From: Dehalococcoidia bacterium
GTDB lineage: Bacteria; Chloroflexota; Dehalococcoidia; Lucifugimonadales; Lucifugimonadaceae
Reading direction: 5' to 3'
DNA: 64,000 nucleotides
NCBI GenBank assembly: GCA_022451965.1
Contig: JAKUNJ010000003.1
Coordinates: 45,460-109,459 of the forward strand
In this document: piece by piece, positions 1,879 to 39,896 of the stretch
How the letters are laid out: each line of letters starts with the position of its first letter
How positions within the stretch are numbered: position 1 is the stretch's first letter
Notes under the pieces: generated by a model
Databases searched by the model: none
Seen by the model: only the letters and a program-made list of their open reading frames with translations
Told to the model about the DNA's origin: nothing
Made by a program: the position numbers and the translations under genes

Positions 1879-2787
1879 ATGTCAAAAAAAAAAATTATTT
1901 CTATTGTTGGGCCAACTGCTTCAGGAAAATCTGATTTAGCATTCAAAATTGCTGAAAAATATAATTTATCAATAGTTAATTCTGATTCTAAGCTTTTGTA
2001 TAGAGATTTTAATATAGGTACTGCAAAACCATCTGAGAACCAAATGAAGAAAGTTAAACATTATATGATTGATTTATTAAATCATAATGAAGGAAGCAAT
2101 CTAGTATGGTTTTTAGAAAATTCAAGAAAAATAATAAATGACTTAGAATCAATACCAATTTTAGTAGGTGGGACTGGCCAATATACTTGGGGAATTATAG
2201 AAGGTTGGGATCCGCCGAAAATAAAACCTAACTCTAGGTTAAGAAATAAACTTGAAAAAGAAATTTCAGAGTTTGGAATAAATCAGGTAATACAAAAATA
2301 TTCTACAAAATATCCATTAAAAGATAATAAAGATTTACAAAACCCTAGAAGATTAGTGAGGATTATAGAAAGATATGACTCAGGATACAATGATTCAAGT
2401 AAAAGAAGGTTAAAGAATCATAACCTAAAAAGCCTAATAATAGGTATAAATATTGATAGAAAAACAAATGACCAATTGATCAAATTAAGAATTCAGAAAA
2501 TGATTGAATCAGGGTGGATAGATGAAGTAAAACAATTATTAGAGAATGGAGTTAAAAAAAATTCTCCTGCAATGTCTTCAATTGGCTACAGAGAAGTAAT
2601 TTCTTATTTAGACCAAGAACTTGATAAAAATCAAATGATTAAAAAAATATTTTCTTCAACTAGAAAGTTGATGCGTCATCAAGATAACTGGTTTAAAAAG
2701 AGTGATAAAAGAATTAAATGGGTAGATTTTGATAATTCATTCGAACAAGCCGATAATATAATATCTTTGTGGTTATCAAAAAATTAG
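1879..2787 (+). CDS. miaA: tRNA dimethylallyltransferase
   Basis: MiaA adds a dimethylallyl group to N6 of adenosine 37 in tRNAs that read codons beginning with U. The 302-residue protein has the P-loop GPTASGKS at residues 11-18, the substrate-binding segment DSKLLYRD starting near 36 (usually DSMQVYR) and GGTGQY near residue 95. Its ATG follows the tpiA stop codon with no spacer. The pairing with glycolysis and lysine genes looks like ordinary operon packing in a compact genome rather than a functional link. Confidence 0.96.
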   Translation: MSKKKIISIVGPTASGKSDLAFKIAEKYNLSIVNSDSKLLYRDFNIGTAKPSENQMKKVKHYMIDLLNHNEGSNLVWFLENSRKIINDLESIPILVGGTGQYTWGIIEGWDPPKIKPNSRLRNKLEKEISEFGINQVIQKYSTKYPLKDNKDLQNPRRLVRIIERYDSGYNDSSKRRLKNHNLKSLIIGINIDRKTNDQLIKLRIQKMIESGWIDEVKQLLENGVKKNSPAMSSIGYREVISYLDQELDKNQMIKKIFSSTRKLMRHQDNWFKKSDKRIKWVDFDNSFEQADNIISLWLSKN

Positions 2788-2796
2788 GAGTTTTAT

Positions 2797-3645
2797 ATGA
2801 TACCTTTTGTTAAACTTCAAGGTGCTGGAAATGATTACATTGCACTAGATGGAAGGAATCAAAATTATGATTGGAATCAATTATCTGTAGATATGAGTAA
2901 ACCTGCTTTCGGGATAGGATCTGATGGAATAGTTGTTGTTTTTGATAGTGATTCAGCTGATATTAGAATGAGGATCTATAATCCTGATGGTTCAGAAGCT
3001 GAAATAAGTGGAAATGGTATAAGATTATTTACAAAATTTGTTATTGATTCAAAAATAATTAATCCCGAAAAAAAAATCTTAAAAATTGAAACAGGAGATG
3101 GAATTAAAACTGTATATCCAAAATTAGAAAATGATAAGGTGATTTCCTCCAGAGTTGAGATGGGTATTCCTAATTTTATACCAAGTAAAATCCCAATTAA
3201 TGTACCAAAATTAAATGATGATGATGCCCCTAAATTTTCTGTATCAATTCTCGATAGGGAACTAGACTTTACTTGCCTGTCTGTAGGTAATCCTCATGCA
3301 GTAATAATAATTGATGAAAAAGTAGAAGAATTTCCATTGGTAGAGATAGGTACTATCGTAGAAAAGCATGAATATTTTCCTAATAGGATAAATTTTGAAG
3401 TAGTAAATATTATTTCTAGGAATAAAATTAGAGCTAGAATTTTTGAAAGAGGAGCAGGCGAGACTCTATCTTCTGGTACAGGGAGCACTGCATCTGCTAG
3501 TGCTGCTAGATACAATGGATTAGTTGATGATGATGTTGAAGTGATATTAGATGGAGGAAATCTAAATATTTCTTGGGATGGTAATGATATGGCAATGTTA
3601 GAAGGGCCAAGTGAAGAAGTTTTTTCTGGAATTTGGCCACATTAA
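2797..3645 (+). CDS. dapF: Diaminopimelate epimerase family protein lacking both catalytic cysteines
   Basis: Full-length (282 residues) homologue of DapF, which converts LL- to meso-diaminopimelate with a two-cysteine acid/base pair. The family landmarks are present: GAGNDYIALD near residue 9, NPDGSEAE near 62, GNPHAV near 164 and ERGAGET near 217. At the two catalytic positions, however, it has serine: Ser71 in EISGNGIR (codon AGT, 3007-3009) and Ser226 in LSSGTG (codon TCT, 3472-3474). The only cysteine is Cys160, elsewhere in the fold. It sits directly before dapL, which supports a diaminopimelate substrate. Whether it still epimerises, or performs another proton-transfer or elimination reaction, cannot be told from the sequence. 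Confidence 0.85.
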   Translation: MIPFVKLQGAGNDYIALDGRNQNYDWNQLSVDMSKPAFGIGSDGIVVVFDSDSADIRMRIYNPDGSEAEISGNGIRLFTKFVIDSKIINPEKKILKIETGDGIKTVYPKLENDKVISSRVEMGIPNFIPSKIPINVPKLNDDDAPKFSVSILDRELDFTCLSVGNPHAVIIIDEKVEEFPLVEIGTIVEKHEYFPNRINFEVVNIISRNKIRARIFERGAGETLSSGTGSTASASAARYNGLVDDDVEVILDGGNLNISWDGNDMAMLEGPSEEVFSGIWPH

Positions 3646-3659: not shown

Positions 3660-4823
3660 ATGAAGTTAGCTAAGAGAGTACAAGAATTACCACCATATCT
3701 ATTTGTTGGTATTTCTAAGGCAATTGCAAAGAAAAAAGAAGAAGGAATAGAAGTTATTTCATTTGGAATAGGTGATCCAGATATACCAACGCCAAATAAT
3801 GTTTTGAATAGACTTAAGTCTGCTTCGGATAATCCTGTTCATCATCGATATCCTGAATCAGAAGGGTTACCTGAATTTCGACAAGCTGTTTCTAATTTTT
3901 ATAAAGAAAGATTTGGTGTAAATTTAGATCATCAAACCGAAGTTATTAATTTAATTGGAGCTAAAGAAGGAATAGCACATGCACCATTATGTTTTATTGA
4001 TCCAGGAGATAAAGCTCTAGTTCCTAACCCGGCTTATCCTGTTTATGAAATTGGAACTATGTTTGCAGGAGGTGAATCAGTATTTGTAGATCTATTAGAA
4101 AAGAATGATTTCCTAATTGATTTTTCTTCAATAGACACAAAAACTGCTAGAGAAGCAAAAATGTTATGGATTAATTATCCTAATAATCCTACAGGAGCAA
4201 TTGCTAACATTGATTTTTTTAGGGAAGCTGTAGAGTTTTGTAAGGAATTTGATATAGCTCTTATGCATGATGCTTGTTATACAGAAGTGACTTATGATGG
4301 ATATGTTGCTCCAAGTATACTTGAGGTGCCTGGAGCTATGGATATTTCAATTGAATTTCATTCTTTATCTAAAACAGCAAATATGACTGGATGGAGAGTC
4401 GGTAGTGCTGTAGGAAATCCTGATCTTATAAATGCCCTAATGAGAGTAAAATCAAATATTGATTCAGGATTGTCTCAAGCAATACAAGAAATGGGAATTG
4501 AAGCCCTTTCTTTATCCAAAGATTGGATTAAGGGAAATAATGATATTTATAAAAAAAGAAGAGATAAAGTAGTTTCAACTTTGAAGGAAATAGGTCTTGA
4601 TGCCGTTGCTCCTAAGGCCACTTTATATATTTGGACAAGAGTTCCTGATGGTTATACTTCAGCATCATTTACAGAAAGATTATTAGAAGACGTAAATGTT
4701 GTAGTGACTCCAGGCAATGGATATGGAACAGCAGGAGAAGGGTTTATAAGACTTTCATTGACTATTCCTGATGATCAAATTGATGAAGGATTGAAAAGAC
4801 TATCTCAATTTACTTTGAATTAA
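3660..4823 (+). CDS. dapL: LL-diaminopimelate aminotransferase (DapL-type)
   Basis: A class I/II PLP aminotransferase of 387 residues. DapL makes LL-diaminopimelate in one step from tetrahydrodipicolinate and glutamate, bypassing the succinylase route. The N-terminus ([24 protein letters not shown]) is typical of the DapL group; NYPNNPTGA lies near residue 172 and the PLP lysine is Lys238 in [12 protein letters not shown]. The start at 3660 is preferred because of AAGGAG at 3648. Adjacency to dapF supports a lysine/diaminopimelate role. A broader-specificity aminotransferase cannot be excluded. Confidence 0.88.
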
Positions 4824-4824
4824 T

Positions 4825-5958
4825 TTGAAAAATTATAAAACAGAAATTCATAAAGAAAAAGCTTTGCTGATTGCAGCTGATCAGAAGAAAAAATGCTCAA
4901 AAAGAAAAATTCTTGAATCTTTGTCTGAATTAAGAAACTTAAGTATTTCTGCGGGAGCTGAACCTATTCTAGAAATTTTTCAATTATTAGATAAACCTCT
5001 TAATACCTATGTTGGTTCAGGTAAAATAATTGAAATAAAAAGTCTTATTAAAAAAATGCATATAGATGTTTGTATTTTTGATGATGAACTAAATCCAAGT
5101 ACTCAAAGAGATCTTGAAAAAAAACTGAATGTTAAGGTTATAGATAGAACTGCATTGATCTTAGATATTTTTTCTAAAAGAGCTCAAAGTCATGAAGGTA
5201 AACTTCAAGTGGAATTAGCTCAATCAGAATATCTTCTACCAAGATTGGCAGGTCAATGGTCTCATTTGGAGAGGCTAGGTGGAGGTATTGGTACAAGAGG
5301 TCCTGGAGAAACTCAAATAGAGACAGATAGACGTTTAATCAGAGGAAGAATAAAACGTGTAAAGGCTGGGATGAAGAAAGTAGAAAATACTAGAACTTCT
5401 CAAAGAAGTAAAAGAATGACTAACAATATTATTAACTATTCTTTAGTTGGGTATACAAACTCAGGAAAAAGTTTACTCTTCAATAGATTAGTTAAGTCCA
5501 ATATTCTCTCAAAAAATCAACTATTTTCCACTTTGGATACTACAACTAGAAAATTTTTTTTACAACATAATATTTCTTCTACTATTTCAGATACAGTAGG
5601 TTTCATTAATAAACTTCCAACAATATTGGTAGAATCCTTCAAATCTACATTAGAAGAAGCAGTGAATGCAGATATTTTGCTTCATGTTGTTGATTTTGCA
5701 GCAGATGATTATCTTGAGAAAATTAAGACTGTGGATCTAATTTTAGAAGATTTAGGATTGTCAGAAGTACCTAAATTATTGATTAAAAATAAAATTGATC
5801 TTATTGATAATATTAATGAGATAATTGATTTAGATTCTAGCTATCTTGCACAAATATCAACATCAGCAAAAAATGGAATTGGCTTCGAAGAGCTCAGAGA
5901 AGCCTTGATTACCTCAGCATCAATAATAAAAAATGAAAATAACTATATATACATATAA
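4825..5958 (+). CDS. hflX: Ribosome-associated GTPase HflX
   Basis: HflX binds the large ribosomal subunit and splits stalled ribosomes. The 377-residue protein has the N-terminal HflX domain, the family signature [18 protein letters not shown] at residues 153-170, and a G domain with G1 GYTNSGKS at 209-216, a DTVGF G3 motif and NKID G4. It is somewhat shorter than the roughly 420 residues of the E. coli protein, mainly at the ends. The start is a TTG one base after the dapL stop without a clear ribosome binding site, so the exact N-terminus is uncertain. Confidence 0.94.
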
Positions 5959-36186: not shown

Positions 36187-36519
36187 ATGTCTTCATATAA
36201 AATTTTATACTGGAAAGAAATTCCAACTCAAATAAAATATACAGATTCTGATGGGCAAGAAACATCTTACCCATTGAGCTTGTTTTTTCAACAAGCTATA
36301 GATGCTATTGCTATGCATGATGGATCAATAACTTCTGGAGAATATTTAGATGCATGGGAATGGGGAAAAATTTTAGATACTGATAAAGAACCTGAAGACA
36401 TTGTATTAAGTTTTGATAATAATATACCTAAGTCATTTATAAATAAACTGAGAAAACTTCATGATTCTGGTCAAAGAGACCCTTCCCCAGGAGCAATTGA
36501 TATATGGTTTCAAAATTAA
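36187..36519 (+). CDS. Virulence-factor-domain small protein (PF13769-like)
   Basis: A 110-residue cytoplasmic protein beginning MSSYKILYWKEIPTQIKY, with FFQQAIDAIAMHDGS and SGEYLDAWEWG following. This matches the small domain called virulence factor in databases; the name comes from a screen and does not imply pathogenicity. The start at 36187 is preferred because an earlier in-frame ATG at 36085 lies inside the divergent gene and gives a poor, unrelated extension. It is the first gene of the corrinoid cluster and overlaps the next gene by 16 bases. Function unknown. Confidence 0.75.
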   Translation: MSSYKILYWKEIPTQIKYTDSDGQETSYPLSLFFQQAIDAIAMHDGSITSGEYLDAWEWGKILDTDKEPEDIVLSFDNNIPKSFINKLRKLHDSGQRDPSPGAIDIWFQN

Positions 36520-37433
36520 ATAGCACATCAAAAAAAATCCTTGAAGAAGCTAATAATGGAAAAATTTTTTTATTAGATGGAGCTACAGGTACCTTTCTTC
36601 AAGAAAATGGACTTGAGCCTGGTGGGTCGCCAGAATTAATGAATATTGAAAAACCAGATGTAATACAAAAGATGGCTGATACTTATTTTGCCAGTGGAAG
36701 TGATATTGTCCTAACTAATACATTTGGTGGAAATTATTTTAGAATGAAGCACTATGGATTAGAAAATCAAGTAATAGAAATAAATAAACAATCAGCTCAA
36801 ATAGCCAAGTCAGTTTCTAAAAAATATAAAGATAAATACGTATTTGGTTCAATTGGTCCAACTGGAGAGTTTATTGAACCACTAGGTAATGTTACTGAAA
36901 GTGAGATGTATGATGCTTTATTAGAACAAATGAAAGGGCTTTATGAAGGTGGGGTTGACGGTTTCATGATTGAAACTCAAATTGCAACCGAGGAAACTTT
37001 GATGGCCATTAAGGTAGCAAGAGAAAATTTTGATATTTTAGTTTTTGCATCTATGGTTTACGATAAAGGGCCAAGAGGATTTTTTACTATGTTTGGGCTT
37101 GAGCCAGAAAAAAGTCTTGATTTATTGTATGAAACCGGTGCAGATGTTGTTGGTACAAATTGTGGGAATGGATCAGAAAAAATGATAGAAATATCTGAAA
37201 TATTTAGAAAATCTACTGATAAACCTTTATTAGTTCAAGCCAATGCAGGGATTCCAAGTATAAAGAAAAATAGTATAATTTATCCAGAAACACCAGAAGA
37301 TATGGCAAAAAATTATAAAAGACTTATAGATTTAAAAATAAATTTCTTAGGTGGTTGTTGTGGTTGCTCTACAAATCACATATCATCTTTTTCAGAGATA
37401 ATAAGGAGTCATAATGAACGTATCTCAGGTTAA
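36504..37433 (+). CDS. Zinc-dependent homocysteine S-methyltransferase family protein
   Basis: A 309-residue TIM-barrel protein like the N-terminal module of cobalamin-dependent methionine synthase and betaine-homocysteine methyltransferase. FLLDGATGTFLQENGL starts at residue 22, TNTFGGN near 71 and GSIGPTGEFIEP near 115. The zinc ligands are all present: Cys220 in GTNCGNG and Cys285/Cys286 in GGCCG. It would methylate homocysteine or another thiol. With a separate corrinoid protein downstream it resembles a split methionine synthase lacking the folate module. AGGAG lies ten bases before the ATG. Confidence 0.9.
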   Translation: MVSKLNSTSKKILEEANNGKIFLLDGATGTFLQENGLEPGGSPELMNIEKPDVIQKMADTYFASGSDIVLTNTFGGNYFRMKHYGLENQVIEINKQSAQIAKSVSKKYKDKYVFGSIGPTGEFIEPLGNVTESEMYDALLEQMKGLYEGGVDGFMIETQIATEETLMAIKVARENFDILVFASMVYDKGPRGFFTMFGLEPEKSLDLLYETGADVVGTNCGNGSEKMIEISEIFRKSTDKPLLVQANAGIPSIKKNSIIYPETPEDMAKNYKRLIDLKINFLGGCCGCSTNHISSFSEIIRSHNERISG

Positions 37434-38058
37434 AAAAGAATTTGGTAAATGTTTAGAACTAGTATCAATGGACCCTAATTTTAACGAAATAAGTGTTGGT
37501 CTTTTTCAAAAAAATGACATACTTACTATTTGGTCATACAGTAGAAAAAATGGAGTAGAAGACAGATTGAACCAAATTCGAGATAAAATGGTTGAATTTG
37601 GAGGACTTACTAAATTAGACTCTGATTTCAAGCTATCAATACCCAAAGGAGCATTAATCTTAAGGCCACTAAAATTTTTATTTGTTAAGTCTGTTGAAAT
37701 GCCTCCTGAATCCGAGCCAGAAGTTGGAGAAATAAAATCTAAAGATAATAAAAGTAAATTAACTTTTTTCATCAAAGGATCAAATATTGATGGTAAATAT
37801 GTTTATAAAGTTTATGCAGAGGGTGACCATGACAAACCTAATATAAGAATTAGGGCTGTTGTGGGTGGATTCTTGAAATATGGAGAATGCTTGAAGAATG
37901 ACATTGATAGTTTTATATTTCCTGATGCAAAAAAACATGATGAATATGTAAGAATTTTGCTGCCATACGCAAGAAATGTAAGTGCAGTTGAAAATATGTT
38001 AAGTGCATCAGATCAAGCAGGTCAAATGACCACTCAATCTTTAGGTTTTTCACAATAG
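37414..38058 (+). CDS. Uncharacterised protein in corrinoid cluster, 214 residues
   Basis: I do not recognise this gene. It is a soluble alpha/beta protein: an N-terminal segment FNEISVGLFQKNDILTIWSY, a proline-rich linker MPPESEPEVGEIKSK near residue 90, then a second domain with VYKVYAEGDHDKP and RIRAVVGGFLKYGE. It has one cysteine and no cofactor motif. AAGGAG lies five bases before the ATG, and it overlaps the homocysteine methyltransferase gene by 20 bases, so it is surely part of the operon. It could be a partner or specificity subunit; this is inference. Confidence 0.8.
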   Translation: MNVSQVKKEFGKCLELVSMDPNFNEISVGLFQKNDILTIWSYSRKNGVEDRLNQIRDKMVEFGGLTKLDSDFKLSIPKGALILRPLKFLFVKSVEMPPESEPEVGEIKSKDNKSKLTFFIKGSNIDGKYVYKVYAEGDHDKPNIRIRAVVGGFLKYGECLKNDIDSFIFPDAKKHDEYVRILLPYARNVSAVENMLSASDQAGQMTTQSLGFSQ

Positions 38059-38067
38059 GGAGTACTT

Positions 38068-39096
38068 ATGAAGTCTATGACAAAAAAGCAAAGAGTTTTA
38101 TCAGCTTTGAACAGACAAGAGGTTGATAGACCACCTGTAGCAAATCCTACATCAGTAGCAACCGTAGAAATGATGGATTTAGTTGATGCTCCTTTCCCTG
38201 AAGCATGCAGATCAGCTGAATTAAATGCGAGATTAGCAGCAACAGAAATTTCAGAATTTGGATTTGATTCTATTGCACCATATTTTTCTATTATTCAAGA
38301 ATCAAGTGCAATTGGATGTGAAATGCAATGGGAACAAAAAGATAATTGGCCAACTGTTCGGATGAGTAATCCAATTTGGAAAACTGCTTCTGATGTTAAG
38401 GTTCCAAAGGATTTTTTAGATCATCCTGATGTAAGAGTGATTATTGATTCTATAAAAATACTTAAAAAAGAATTTGGAGAGGATGTTCCTATAATTGGAA
38501 AAACTATGGGCCCCTGGACTCTCGCTTATCATGTTTTTGGAGTTGAAACTTTTTTATTAGGATCAGTTGATAATCCTAGTGAAACAATTGAAGCTCTTGA
38601 TAAATTAACTGAATTTACATATCTTTTTGGTGAGGCTCAAGTTGATGCAGGAGCAGATGTACTGACAGTTCCTGATCATGCAACTGGAGACTTAGTTTCA
38701 GGTCAATATTACCAGAAATTCCTTCAAGATATTCATTCAGAAATGGCAGAAAGATTTACCGTTCCACTGATTCTTCATATTTGTGGAAGAACTGTTGACA
38801 GAATGCCTTTTGTTGCAGAAACTGGAATGCACGCATTTCATTTTGATTCAAAAAATTCTCCTCAAGAAGCTATGGATGCTGTAAATAATAAAATAGCCTT
38901 AGTGGGAAATATTAATAATCCTGAAACATTATATTCAAAAGATACAGATGATGTAAAAAAAGAAGTTTTTGAATGCTTAAATGCGGGGGTTCAGTTAATA
39001 GCACCAGAGTGTGCTATTCCATTAAAAACAAAAGCAGAAAATCTAATTGCTATAACTGAAGGTATTACAGATTGGTTAGCAGAAACTCAAAAATAA
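38068..39096 (+). CDS. MtaA/CmuA-type zinc methyltransferase (uroporphyrinogen decarboxylase superfamily)
   Basis: A 342-residue TIM-barrel methyltransferase. The zinc site His-x-Cys-xn-Cys typical of MtaA/MtbA/CmuA is complete: His237-Ile-Cys239 in LHICGRT and Cys315 in APECAIP. KTMGPWTLAYHVFGVE near residue 145 and the fingerprint KKQRVLSALNRQEVDRPPV at the start agree. These enzymes move a methyl group between a corrinoid protein and a thiol or other acceptor. The HemE heme enzyme is excluded by the Zn site and context. GGAG lies five bases before the ATG, nine bases after the preceding stop. Confidence 0.9.
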   Translation: MKSMTKKQRVLSALNRQEVDRPPVANPTSVATVEMMDLVDAPFPEACRSAELNARLAATEISEFGFDSIAPYFSIIQESSAIGCEMQWEQKDNWPTVRMSNPIWKTASDVKVPKDFLDHPDVRVIIDSIKILKKEFGEDVPIIGKTMGPWTLAYHVFGVETFLLGSVDNPSETIEALDKLTEFTYLFGEAQVDAGADVLTVPDHATGDLVSGQYYQKFLQDIHSEMAERFTVPLILHICGRTVDRMPFVAETGMHAFHFDSKNSPQEAMDAVNNKIALVGNINNPETLYSKDTDDVKKEVFECLNAGVQLIAPECAIPLKTKAENLIAITEGITDWLAETQK

Positions 39097-39152
39097 TTAA
39101 TGGTGGTAAAATTAAATTAATTGTTATTTTTATAATATGAGGATTAAATTAT

Positions 39153-39896
39153 ATGTTTGAACATGAGGGATTACTCAAAGAATTTGAATGGGTAACCAAA
39201 GAAAGTGAAAAGAAACATATTGGAGAATCTATAGCTAAAACTTCAATCGAAATGCAAGAAATTGCCTTTGCACTTATTCAAGGTGATAATGATACTGTAG
39301 ATAAGTTGACCAAAGAATATTTAGAAAACGGTACTTCAGCTAATGAAATTTTAGATGATGGCTTGCTAAATGGAATGGCTATAGTTGGAGTCAAATTTAG
39401 AGATAATATTATATTTGTGCCAGAAGTTCTTATTTCTGCAAGAGCTATGAAAGCCGGAATGACACATATTGAACCAATATTATCTGAGTCTGGAATTGAG
39501 CCTCAAGGAACTGTCGTTATGGGTACAGTCAAAGGGGATCTTCATGATATTGGTAAAAATCTCTGTATTATGATGCTAAGAGGTGCAGGTTTTGTTGTTC
39601 ATGATCTTGGAGTTGACACATCTCCAGAAGATTTTGCAGATGGATTTGAAGAGTATGAACCTGATGTCATTGGTATGTCTGCTTTGCTAACAACTACTAT
39701 GCCAAATATGGGTAGAACAATACAATATTTTGAAGATATTGGGCTAAGGGATGATGTAAGACTCATGGTTGGAGGAGCTCCTGTTACTCAAGAATTTGCT
39801 GATGAAATGGGTGCTGATGCTTATGGAGAAAGCGCTGTAGATGCAGTTGATAAGGCAAAAGAACAAATTGTTCTGCTTAAAGAATTGAAAAGCTAA
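39153..39896 (+). CDS. Methyltransferase corrinoid protein (B12-binding)
   Basis: A 247-residue cobalamin carrier. A helical cap domain (about residues 28-110) is followed by a Rossmann-like B12 domain with the lower-ligand motif GDLHDIGKNL: Asp129-x-His131-x2-Gly134. SALLTTTMPNM near 182 and VGGAPVTQEFADEMGADAY near 205 complete the family pattern. It would carry the methyl group as methyl-Co(III). GAGG lies ten bases before the ATG. The 56-base gap before it is the widest in the cluster and contains a TATAAT at 39131 without a convincing -35 box. Confidence 0.95.
   Translation: MFEHEGLLKEFEWVTKESEKKHIGESIAKTSIEMQEIAFALIQGDNDTVDKLTKEYLENGTSANEILDDGLLNGMAIVGVKFRDNIIFVPEVLISARAMKAGMTHIEPILSESGIEPQGTVVMGTVKGDLHDIGKNLCIMMLRGAGFVVHDLGVDTSPEDFADGFEEYEPDVIGMSALLTTTMPNMGRTIQYFEDIGLRDDVRLMVGGAPVTQEFADEMGADAYGESAVDAVDKAKEQIVLLKELKS

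What the first reader, a model, noticed from the sequence alone, without database searches (positions are those of the whole stretch)
2797..3645. DapF homologue with both catalytic cysteines replaced by serine
The two cysteines that give and take the proton in characterised DapF align with Ser71 (codon AGT) and Ser226 (codon TCT) while all surrounding signatures are kept. In H. influenzae, cysteine-to-serine mutants are known to lose epimerase activity, and Cys-to-Thr/Ser changes in the related proline racemase family mark dehydratases. Two independent losses with an intact fold argue for a changed reaction or an unusual active site. The gene keeps its place beside dapL, so a diaminopimelate-related substrate is plausible.
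Basis: partly seen in the sequence, partly recalled or inferred. Interest (0 to 1): 0.75.

Follow-up and report, generated by a model that had tools for sequence, protein, structure and literature searches.

The report
SAR202 DapF with serine-serine active site
A family of ocean bacteria makes lysine with an epimerase in which both catalytic cysteines have been replaced by serines and then kept unchanged, which suggests, but does not prove, that two serine hydroxyls can do a job thought to need two cysteine thiols.

Summary
Window 2797-3645 encodes a single-copy DapF of a SAR202 (Chloroflexota) genome, with Ser71 (AGT) and Ser226 (TCT) at the two catalytic-cysteine positions. It is not a sequencing error. 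Ser/Ser is invariant in 47 of 47 DapF read from 12 genera of this family, and the serine codons never leave their class (AGY at 71, TCN at 226). Nearly all other families of the order sampled are Cys/Cys. The gene keeps the tpi-miaA-dapF-dapL-hflX neighbourhood. All ten inferred substrate-contact residues are invariant. lysA is present in 35 of 36 family relatives; no meso-DAP dehydrogenase was found. The protein is not evolving faster than its cysteine relatives. Family-specific fixed changes cluster at the active site; dapL and miaA have none. Single Ser replacements recur in other families. A second, apparently independent Ser/Ser DapF group occurs in other Chloroflexota, beside an ordinary lysA in two genomes. 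Best reading: a working LL/meso-diaminopimelate epimerase with a natural two-serine acid/base pair, probably slow but sufficient in cells that need DAP only for lysine. The unusual active site is supported; a changed reaction is not needed. Activity is untested.

The parts
2797..3645 (+). dapF, Ser/Ser diaminopimelate epimerase homologue (282 aa)
   Evidence: TIGR00652 226 bits over cut-off 114.65; PF01678 154.7 bits, two domains
3007..3009 (+). Ser71 codon AGT, at first catalytic Cys position (Cys73 in H. influenzae numbering, mapped from memory)
   Evidence: alignments; AGY in 47/47 family sequences
3025..3027 (+). Leu77, Cys in nearly all Cys/Cys relatives
3439..3444 (+). Ile215-Phe216, Val-Trp in nearly all relatives, just before the Glu217-Arg218 substrate contacts
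3469..3471 (+). Ser225, Ala in order relatives
3472..3474 (+). Ser226 codon TCT, at second catalytic Cys position
   Evidence: alignments; TCN in 47/47 family sequences
3660..4823 (+). dapL, LL-diaminopimelate aminotransferase, next gene
   Evidence: NF006756 589 bits over cut-off 507; TIGR03540 569.6 bits, just under its cut-off 593
1879..2787 (+). miaA, upstream neighbour, conserved synteny
   Evidence: TIGR00174 over cut-off; synteny
4825..5958 (+). hflX, downstream neighbour, conserved synteny
   Evidence: TIGR03156 over cut-off; synteny

Best explanation
The gene is the orthologous, sole DapF of this SAR202 family and still converts LL-diaminopimelate (from DapL) to meso-diaminopimelate for LysA and lysine synthesis. 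Its catalytic acid/base pair is Ser71/Ser226 instead of Cys/Cys. As in ordinary DapF, each residue would sit at the start of a central helix on one face of the substrate alpha-carbon: one serine, activated by the helix dipole and the closed, desolvated site, removes the proton, and the other returns one. Neighbouring changes (C77L, V215I, W216F, A225S) would tune the site for hydroxyl chemistry. Such an enzyme is probably slower than Cys/Cys DapF but cannot be shut off by the disulfide that inactivates some Cys/Cys enzymes. Slow turnover may be enough because these cells lack peptidoglycan and need DAP only for lysine. Shown: presence, conservation, single copy, neighbourhood, pathway partners, intact substrate contacts, unrelaxed selection. 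Inferred: catalytic activity, the serine roles, the tuning role, the slow-but-sufficient and oxidation-proof arguments.
For: Sole DapF. tpi-miaA-dapF-dapL-hflX kept in Ser/Ser and Cys/Cys genomes. LysA in 35 of 36 family relatives searched plus the own genome; ddh in none of 60; MurE over its cut-off in none of 60; SAR202 reported to lack peptidoglycan (PMC10444878, PMC11994032). All inferred substrate contacts (N12 N62 G72 N73 N165 N199 E217 R218 G227 T228) kept in the family. Ser71 AGY and Ser226 TCN in 47/47, while site 230 wanders among AGY, TCN and ACN. dapF/dapL distance ratio 1.27 in the family against 1.41 in the mostly Cys/Cys relatives; also lower against miaA and lysA. Fixed differences in dapF all lie near the active site; none in dapL or miaA. 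No other family-specific acid/base residue gained. Single Ser variants recur and a second Ser/Ser group lies beside dapL/miaA or a canonical lysA.
Against: Engineered single Cys-to-Ser or Cys-to-Ala mutants in this fold lose most activity: C. glutamicum DapF C83A and C221A (PMC5296763), F. nucleatum HisR C67S and C209S (PMC11602996). A review of racemase bases lists no Ser/Ser pair (PMC8142540). LysA of the family also carries clade-specific changes, one of them two residues before the presumed PLP lysine (A73S), so the pathway may have shifted in another way. No assay and no usable structure model: the prediction was poor (pLDDT 40.6).
Confidence: 0.6

Rival explanations
1. The protein has changed reaction or substrate (for example an elimination, dehydration or a different amino acid), and meso-DAP is made some other way.
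For: Cys-to-Thr change in a trans-3-hydroxyproline enzyme turns an epimerase into a dehydratase, and Cys-to-Ser mutants of glutamate racemase catalyse elimination (PMC8142540). A predicted DapF of Fusobacterium proved to be a histidine racemase (PMC11602996).
Against: All ten inferred DAP contacts kept; next to dapL with lysA in the genome; no ddh found and no second DapF; DAP has no leaving group at the beta-carbon.
Confidence: 0.14
2. DapF no longer catalyses; LysA of this family takes LL-DAP directly, or an unidentified promiscuous racemase makes meso-DAP, and DapF is kept as a binding, regulatory or complex-forming protein.
For: LysA shows family-specific changes (A73S near the presumed PLP lysine, Y115N, V138T, M437L), while dapL and miaA show none. 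A search for PLP-type racemases was not made.
Against: A non-catalytic protein would not need the exact Ser side chain at both catalytic positions in 47/47 sequences; two genomes with the second Ser/Ser group have a nearby LysA with the ordinary residues.
Confidence: 0.16
3. A different residue in DapF has taken over as base, for example the invariant Cys160.
For: Cys160 is Cys in 47/47 family sequences but only 27 of 61 Cys/Cys ones.
Against: Cys160 is common in Cys/Cys enzymes too and lies outside the two catalytic motifs; no family-specific new acid/base residue was found apart from the serines.
Confidence: 0.06
4. Sequencing or assembly error, or a decaying pseudogene.
For: None found.
Against: 47 sequences from many independent assemblies, open frames, strong conservation, frozen codons.
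Confidence: 0.01

Closest known systems
Diaminopimelate epimerase DapF (TIGR00652, PF01678), Cys/Cys
   Same: Whole-length homology over the equivalog cut-off, all inferred substrate contacts, place beside dapL, single copy
   Different: Both catalytic cysteines are serine; C77L, V215I, W216F, A225S also fixed
Second Ser/Ser DapF group of other Chloroflexota (EKSGNG ... LASGSSSCA; L336-L346), unnamed
   Same: Ser at both catalytic positions, non-Cys at 77, usually Ser at 230; beside dapL/miaA or lysA in several genomes
   Different: 36% mean identity to this protein, keeps Trp216, has Ser229; separate in the tree, though one clade is not formally rejected (AU p 0.12)
Ser/Cys and Cys/Ser DapF of Dehalococcoidia families (found here)
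   Same: One catalytic cysteine naturally replaced by serine
   Different: The other cysteine remains; Trp216 and Cys77 kept in the ones read
F. nucleatum HisR and S. aureus CntK histidine racemases
   Same: DapF-like fold, two-base mechanism
   Different: Cys/Cys; different substrate and context
Aspartate/glutamate racemase EcL-DER and trans-3-hydroxyproline dehydratase (Cys to Thr)
   Same: A catalytic cysteine naturally replaced by a hydroxyl residue
   Different: Other families and substrates, one substitution only, one-way or eliminating reaction (PMC8142540)

Membership tests
DapF (TIGR00652 / PF01678) | Profile score over curated cut-off across the whole protein | tested here: met
   226.3 bits against 114.65; PF01678 154.7 against 34.7
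DapF (TIGR00652 / PF01678) | Two catalytic cysteines, one per domain | tested here: not met
   Ser71 and Ser226 in 47/47 family sequences
DapF (TIGR00652 / PF01678) | Residues that bind both ends of DAP | tested here: met
   N12 N62 G72 N73 N165 N199 E217 R218 G227 T228 kept; contact list mapped from memory of the H. influenzae complex and agreeing with the residues mutated in C. glutamicum DapF
DapF (TIGR00652 / PF01678) | Sits in a DAP/lysine pathway as its only epimerase | tested here: met
   dapL adjacent, lysA, no ddh, single DapF; dapA and dapB were not searched
DapF (TIGR00652 / PF01678) | LL/meso-DAP epimerase activity | not testable with these tools
   needs assay
DapF (TIGR00652 / PF01678) | DapF two-domain fold | tested here: inconclusive
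   model poor, pLDDT 40.6 on a 7-sequence alignment; both domains recognised by PF01678
trans-3-hydroxyproline dehydratase / proline racemase superfamily | Profile match to that family and a Cys/Thr pair | tested here: not met
   No such family among the matches of this protein; residues are Ser/Ser
Bifunctional DapF/glutamate racemase (NF038284) | Score over curated cut-off 350 | tested here: not met
   76.9 bits

The most novel reading that the evidence does not exclude
A cofactor-independent amino-acid epimerase that works with two serine hydroxyls as its acid/base pair, fixed in a whole SAR202 family and reached a second time in other Chloroflexota.
Probability: 0.5. Interest if true: 0.8.

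Novelty: new variant of a known kind. Interest (0 to 1): 0.6.

Why it matters
Cysteine is favoured in PLP-independent racemases because a desolvated thiolate can match the high pKa of an amino-acid alpha-proton. A naturally selected Ser/Ser enzyme would show that hydroxyls can serve, and the series Cys/Cys, Ser/Cys, Cys/Ser and Ser/Ser among relatives offers a ready system to learn how. It also warns that annotation by profile score hides a change in the catalytic residues themselves, and that inhibitors which react with the DapF thiols would not be expected to bind such enzymes covalently.

Tried and rejected
Error or pseudogene: rejected. Second cysteine DapF in the genome: none. ddh bypass: none in 60 genomes. 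Peptidoglycan demand: no MurE over cut-off in 60. A new base elsewhere in the protein: none specific to the family. Uniqueness to this family: rejected by the second Ser/Ser group. LysA co-change as proof of an LL-DAP decarboxylase: not accepted, because two Ser/Ser genomes of the other group have ordinary LysA. Viral contigs: no Ser/Ser match; of 142 held contigs matching first-motif patterns only one held a recognisable DapF, Cys at the first site. A first-motif pattern with wrong spacing wasted one search. Structure model too poor to use. Plasmid survey: readable dapF outside Chloroflexota were Cys/Cys except one Streptomyces copy. Literature searches in the held open-access library found no report of a natural Ser/Ser DapF. 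Promoter, terminator and repeat scans of the locus showed nothing beyond chance. The whole genome was not available as a file and was not rebuilt from pieces.

Full report
The observation. The ORF at 2797..3645 (+) encodes 282 aa that score 226 bits against the DapF equivalog model, cut-off 114.65, and match both PF01678 domains. Alignment to solved DapF puts Ser71 (AGT, 3007-3009) and Ser226 (TCT, 3472-3474) on the two catalytic cysteines. The genome (1.25 Mb, 97.8% complete) has no other match to the family at E up to 10. Close relatives in named collections are SAR202 and other marine Chloroflexota genomes.

Conservation. DapF was found in 55 of 60 relatives. In 47 sequences read from the window's family (f1, 12 genera) the pair is Ser/Ser without exception; in most other families of the order it is Cys/Cys. 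A pattern for GET(L/M)SSG(T/S)G was found in 67 of 76 f1 genomes, the nine misses being at most 83% complete, and in two of 174 other genomes of the order, neither reading as a DapF motif. In a tree built without the motif columns the Ser/Ser rows of f1 form one clade, SH-aLRT 100. Ser71 is AGY in 47/47 and Ser226 TCN in 47/47, so the two changes took different mutational paths and neither site has been seen to leave its codon class; nearby site 230 moves among AGY, TCN and ACN. This points to selection for serine itself.

What else changed. Comparing f1 with the other families of the order, six positions are fixed differently: C71S, C77L, V215I, W216F, A225S, C226S, all in or beside the two active-site motifs. 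The same test finds none in DapL and none in MiaA. LysA shows a few (A73S, Y115N, V138T, M437L); A73S is two residues before the lysine that should hold PLP. The ten residues inferred to contact DAP are unchanged. f1 DapF has 2.0 cysteines on average against 5.5 in Cys/Cys enzymes, and no new family-specific acid/base residue beyond the serines themselves.

Selection. The ratio of DapF to DapL protein distance is 1.27 within f1 and 1.41 within the other families; against MiaA 0.56 and 0.81; against LysA 0.83 and 1.25. DapF is not relaxed.

Pathway. The order tpi-miaA-dapF-dapL-hflX is shared by Ser/Ser and Cys/Cys genomes, with small insertions in some. LysA is present in 59 of 60 relatives and in the own genome, with aspartate kinase nearby. 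The meso-DAP dehydrogenase that would bypass DapF was not found in 60. MurE does not reach its cut-off in any of 60, in line with reports that SAR202 lack peptidoglycan (PMC10444878, PMC11994032); the second also reports complete amino-acid pathways in streamlined SAR202. So meso-DAP appears to be needed for lysine only, and this DapF is the only source identified.

Wider distribution. In the class, the first site is Ser with Cys at the second in members of f14, f46, f54, f58, f167 and f171, and Cys/Ser occurs in f34 and f49. In other classes of the phylum a further group reads EKSGNG(I/L/V)R ... (L)ASG(S/T)S(S/A)(C/S)A: Ser/Ser again. It scores as DapF, lies beside dapL or miaA in several genomes and near lysA in two, and those LysA have the usual Ala, Ser and, where read, Val at the sites compared. 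The tree places this group apart from f1; parsimony and the well-supported branches need two origins, but a test of one clade gave p-AU 0.12, so one origin is disfavoured rather than excluded. Mean identity to this protein is 36%, against 43% for order relatives. The motif pattern found one copy only in each of these eleven genomes. Outside Chloroflexota a small plasmid sample was Cys/Cys except one Streptomyces gene. Both Ser/Ser groups lack Cys77 and mostly carry Ser230, but Cys/Cys enzymes of other phyla can lack Cys77 too, so that change alone means little.

How it may work. In ordinary DapF one thiolate takes the alpha-proton and the other thiol returns one (PMC8142540). Alanine mutants of C. 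glutamicum DapF are nearly dead (PMC5296763); Cys-to-Ser mutants of the related HisR are much weaker (PMC11602996), and a DapF structure paper says such mutation hinders catalysis (PMC12039745). Natural hydroxyl bases have precedent: a Ser in PLP-dependent serine racemase and a Thr in some aspartate/glutamate racemases. An evolved site with altered neighbours is not a point mutant, so loss of activity in mutants does not settle the matter. C. glutamicum DapF is inactivated by oxidation of its two cysteines to a disulfide; a Ser/Ser enzyme would escape this. That benefit is a conjecture, weakened by the Cys/Cys state of related families.

Verdict. The unusual active site is real and fixed across a whole family. 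The most economical function is the ancestral one, done by a serine pair (0.60). Rivals are a changed reaction, a non-catalytic role with LL-DAP used elsewhere, or another base. Only assay can decide.

Noticed in passing
L137:5321-6661 (lysA of the window's genome) and family relatives: LysA of this family has fixed changes A73S (two before the presumed PLP lysine), Y115N, V138T, M437L against the rest of the order; DapL and MiaA have none.
   Followed up: partly
genome handles G038 (family f3) and G045 (f10): LysA present but no DapF match even at E up to 10; G038 is 92% complete. May be a gap or another epimerase.
   Followed up: partly
window 36504-39896: Cluster resembling corrinoid methyltransfer genes: homocysteine/betaine S-methyltransferase-like, MtaA/CmuA-like methyltransferase, MtgC/MtbC-like corrinoid protein.
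   Followed up: no
L359:292-1236 (Streptomyces sp. NBC_01216 plasmid): DapF-annotated protein with Ser at both catalytic positions (MSGNG ... ASGSGACA), between a 2OG-Fe dioxygenase and a molybdopterin oxidoreductase; perhaps a biosynthetic-cluster enzyme.
   Followed up: no
L043:3643-4494 (family f14): DapF with Ser/Cys and Asp in place of the substrate-contact Asn73 (MSGDGIR).
   Followed up: no
L162:1681-2523 (family f49) and L140:1495-2406 (family f34): DapF with Cys/Ser, the reverse single replacement; L162 reads LASGTSASA.
   Followed up: partly
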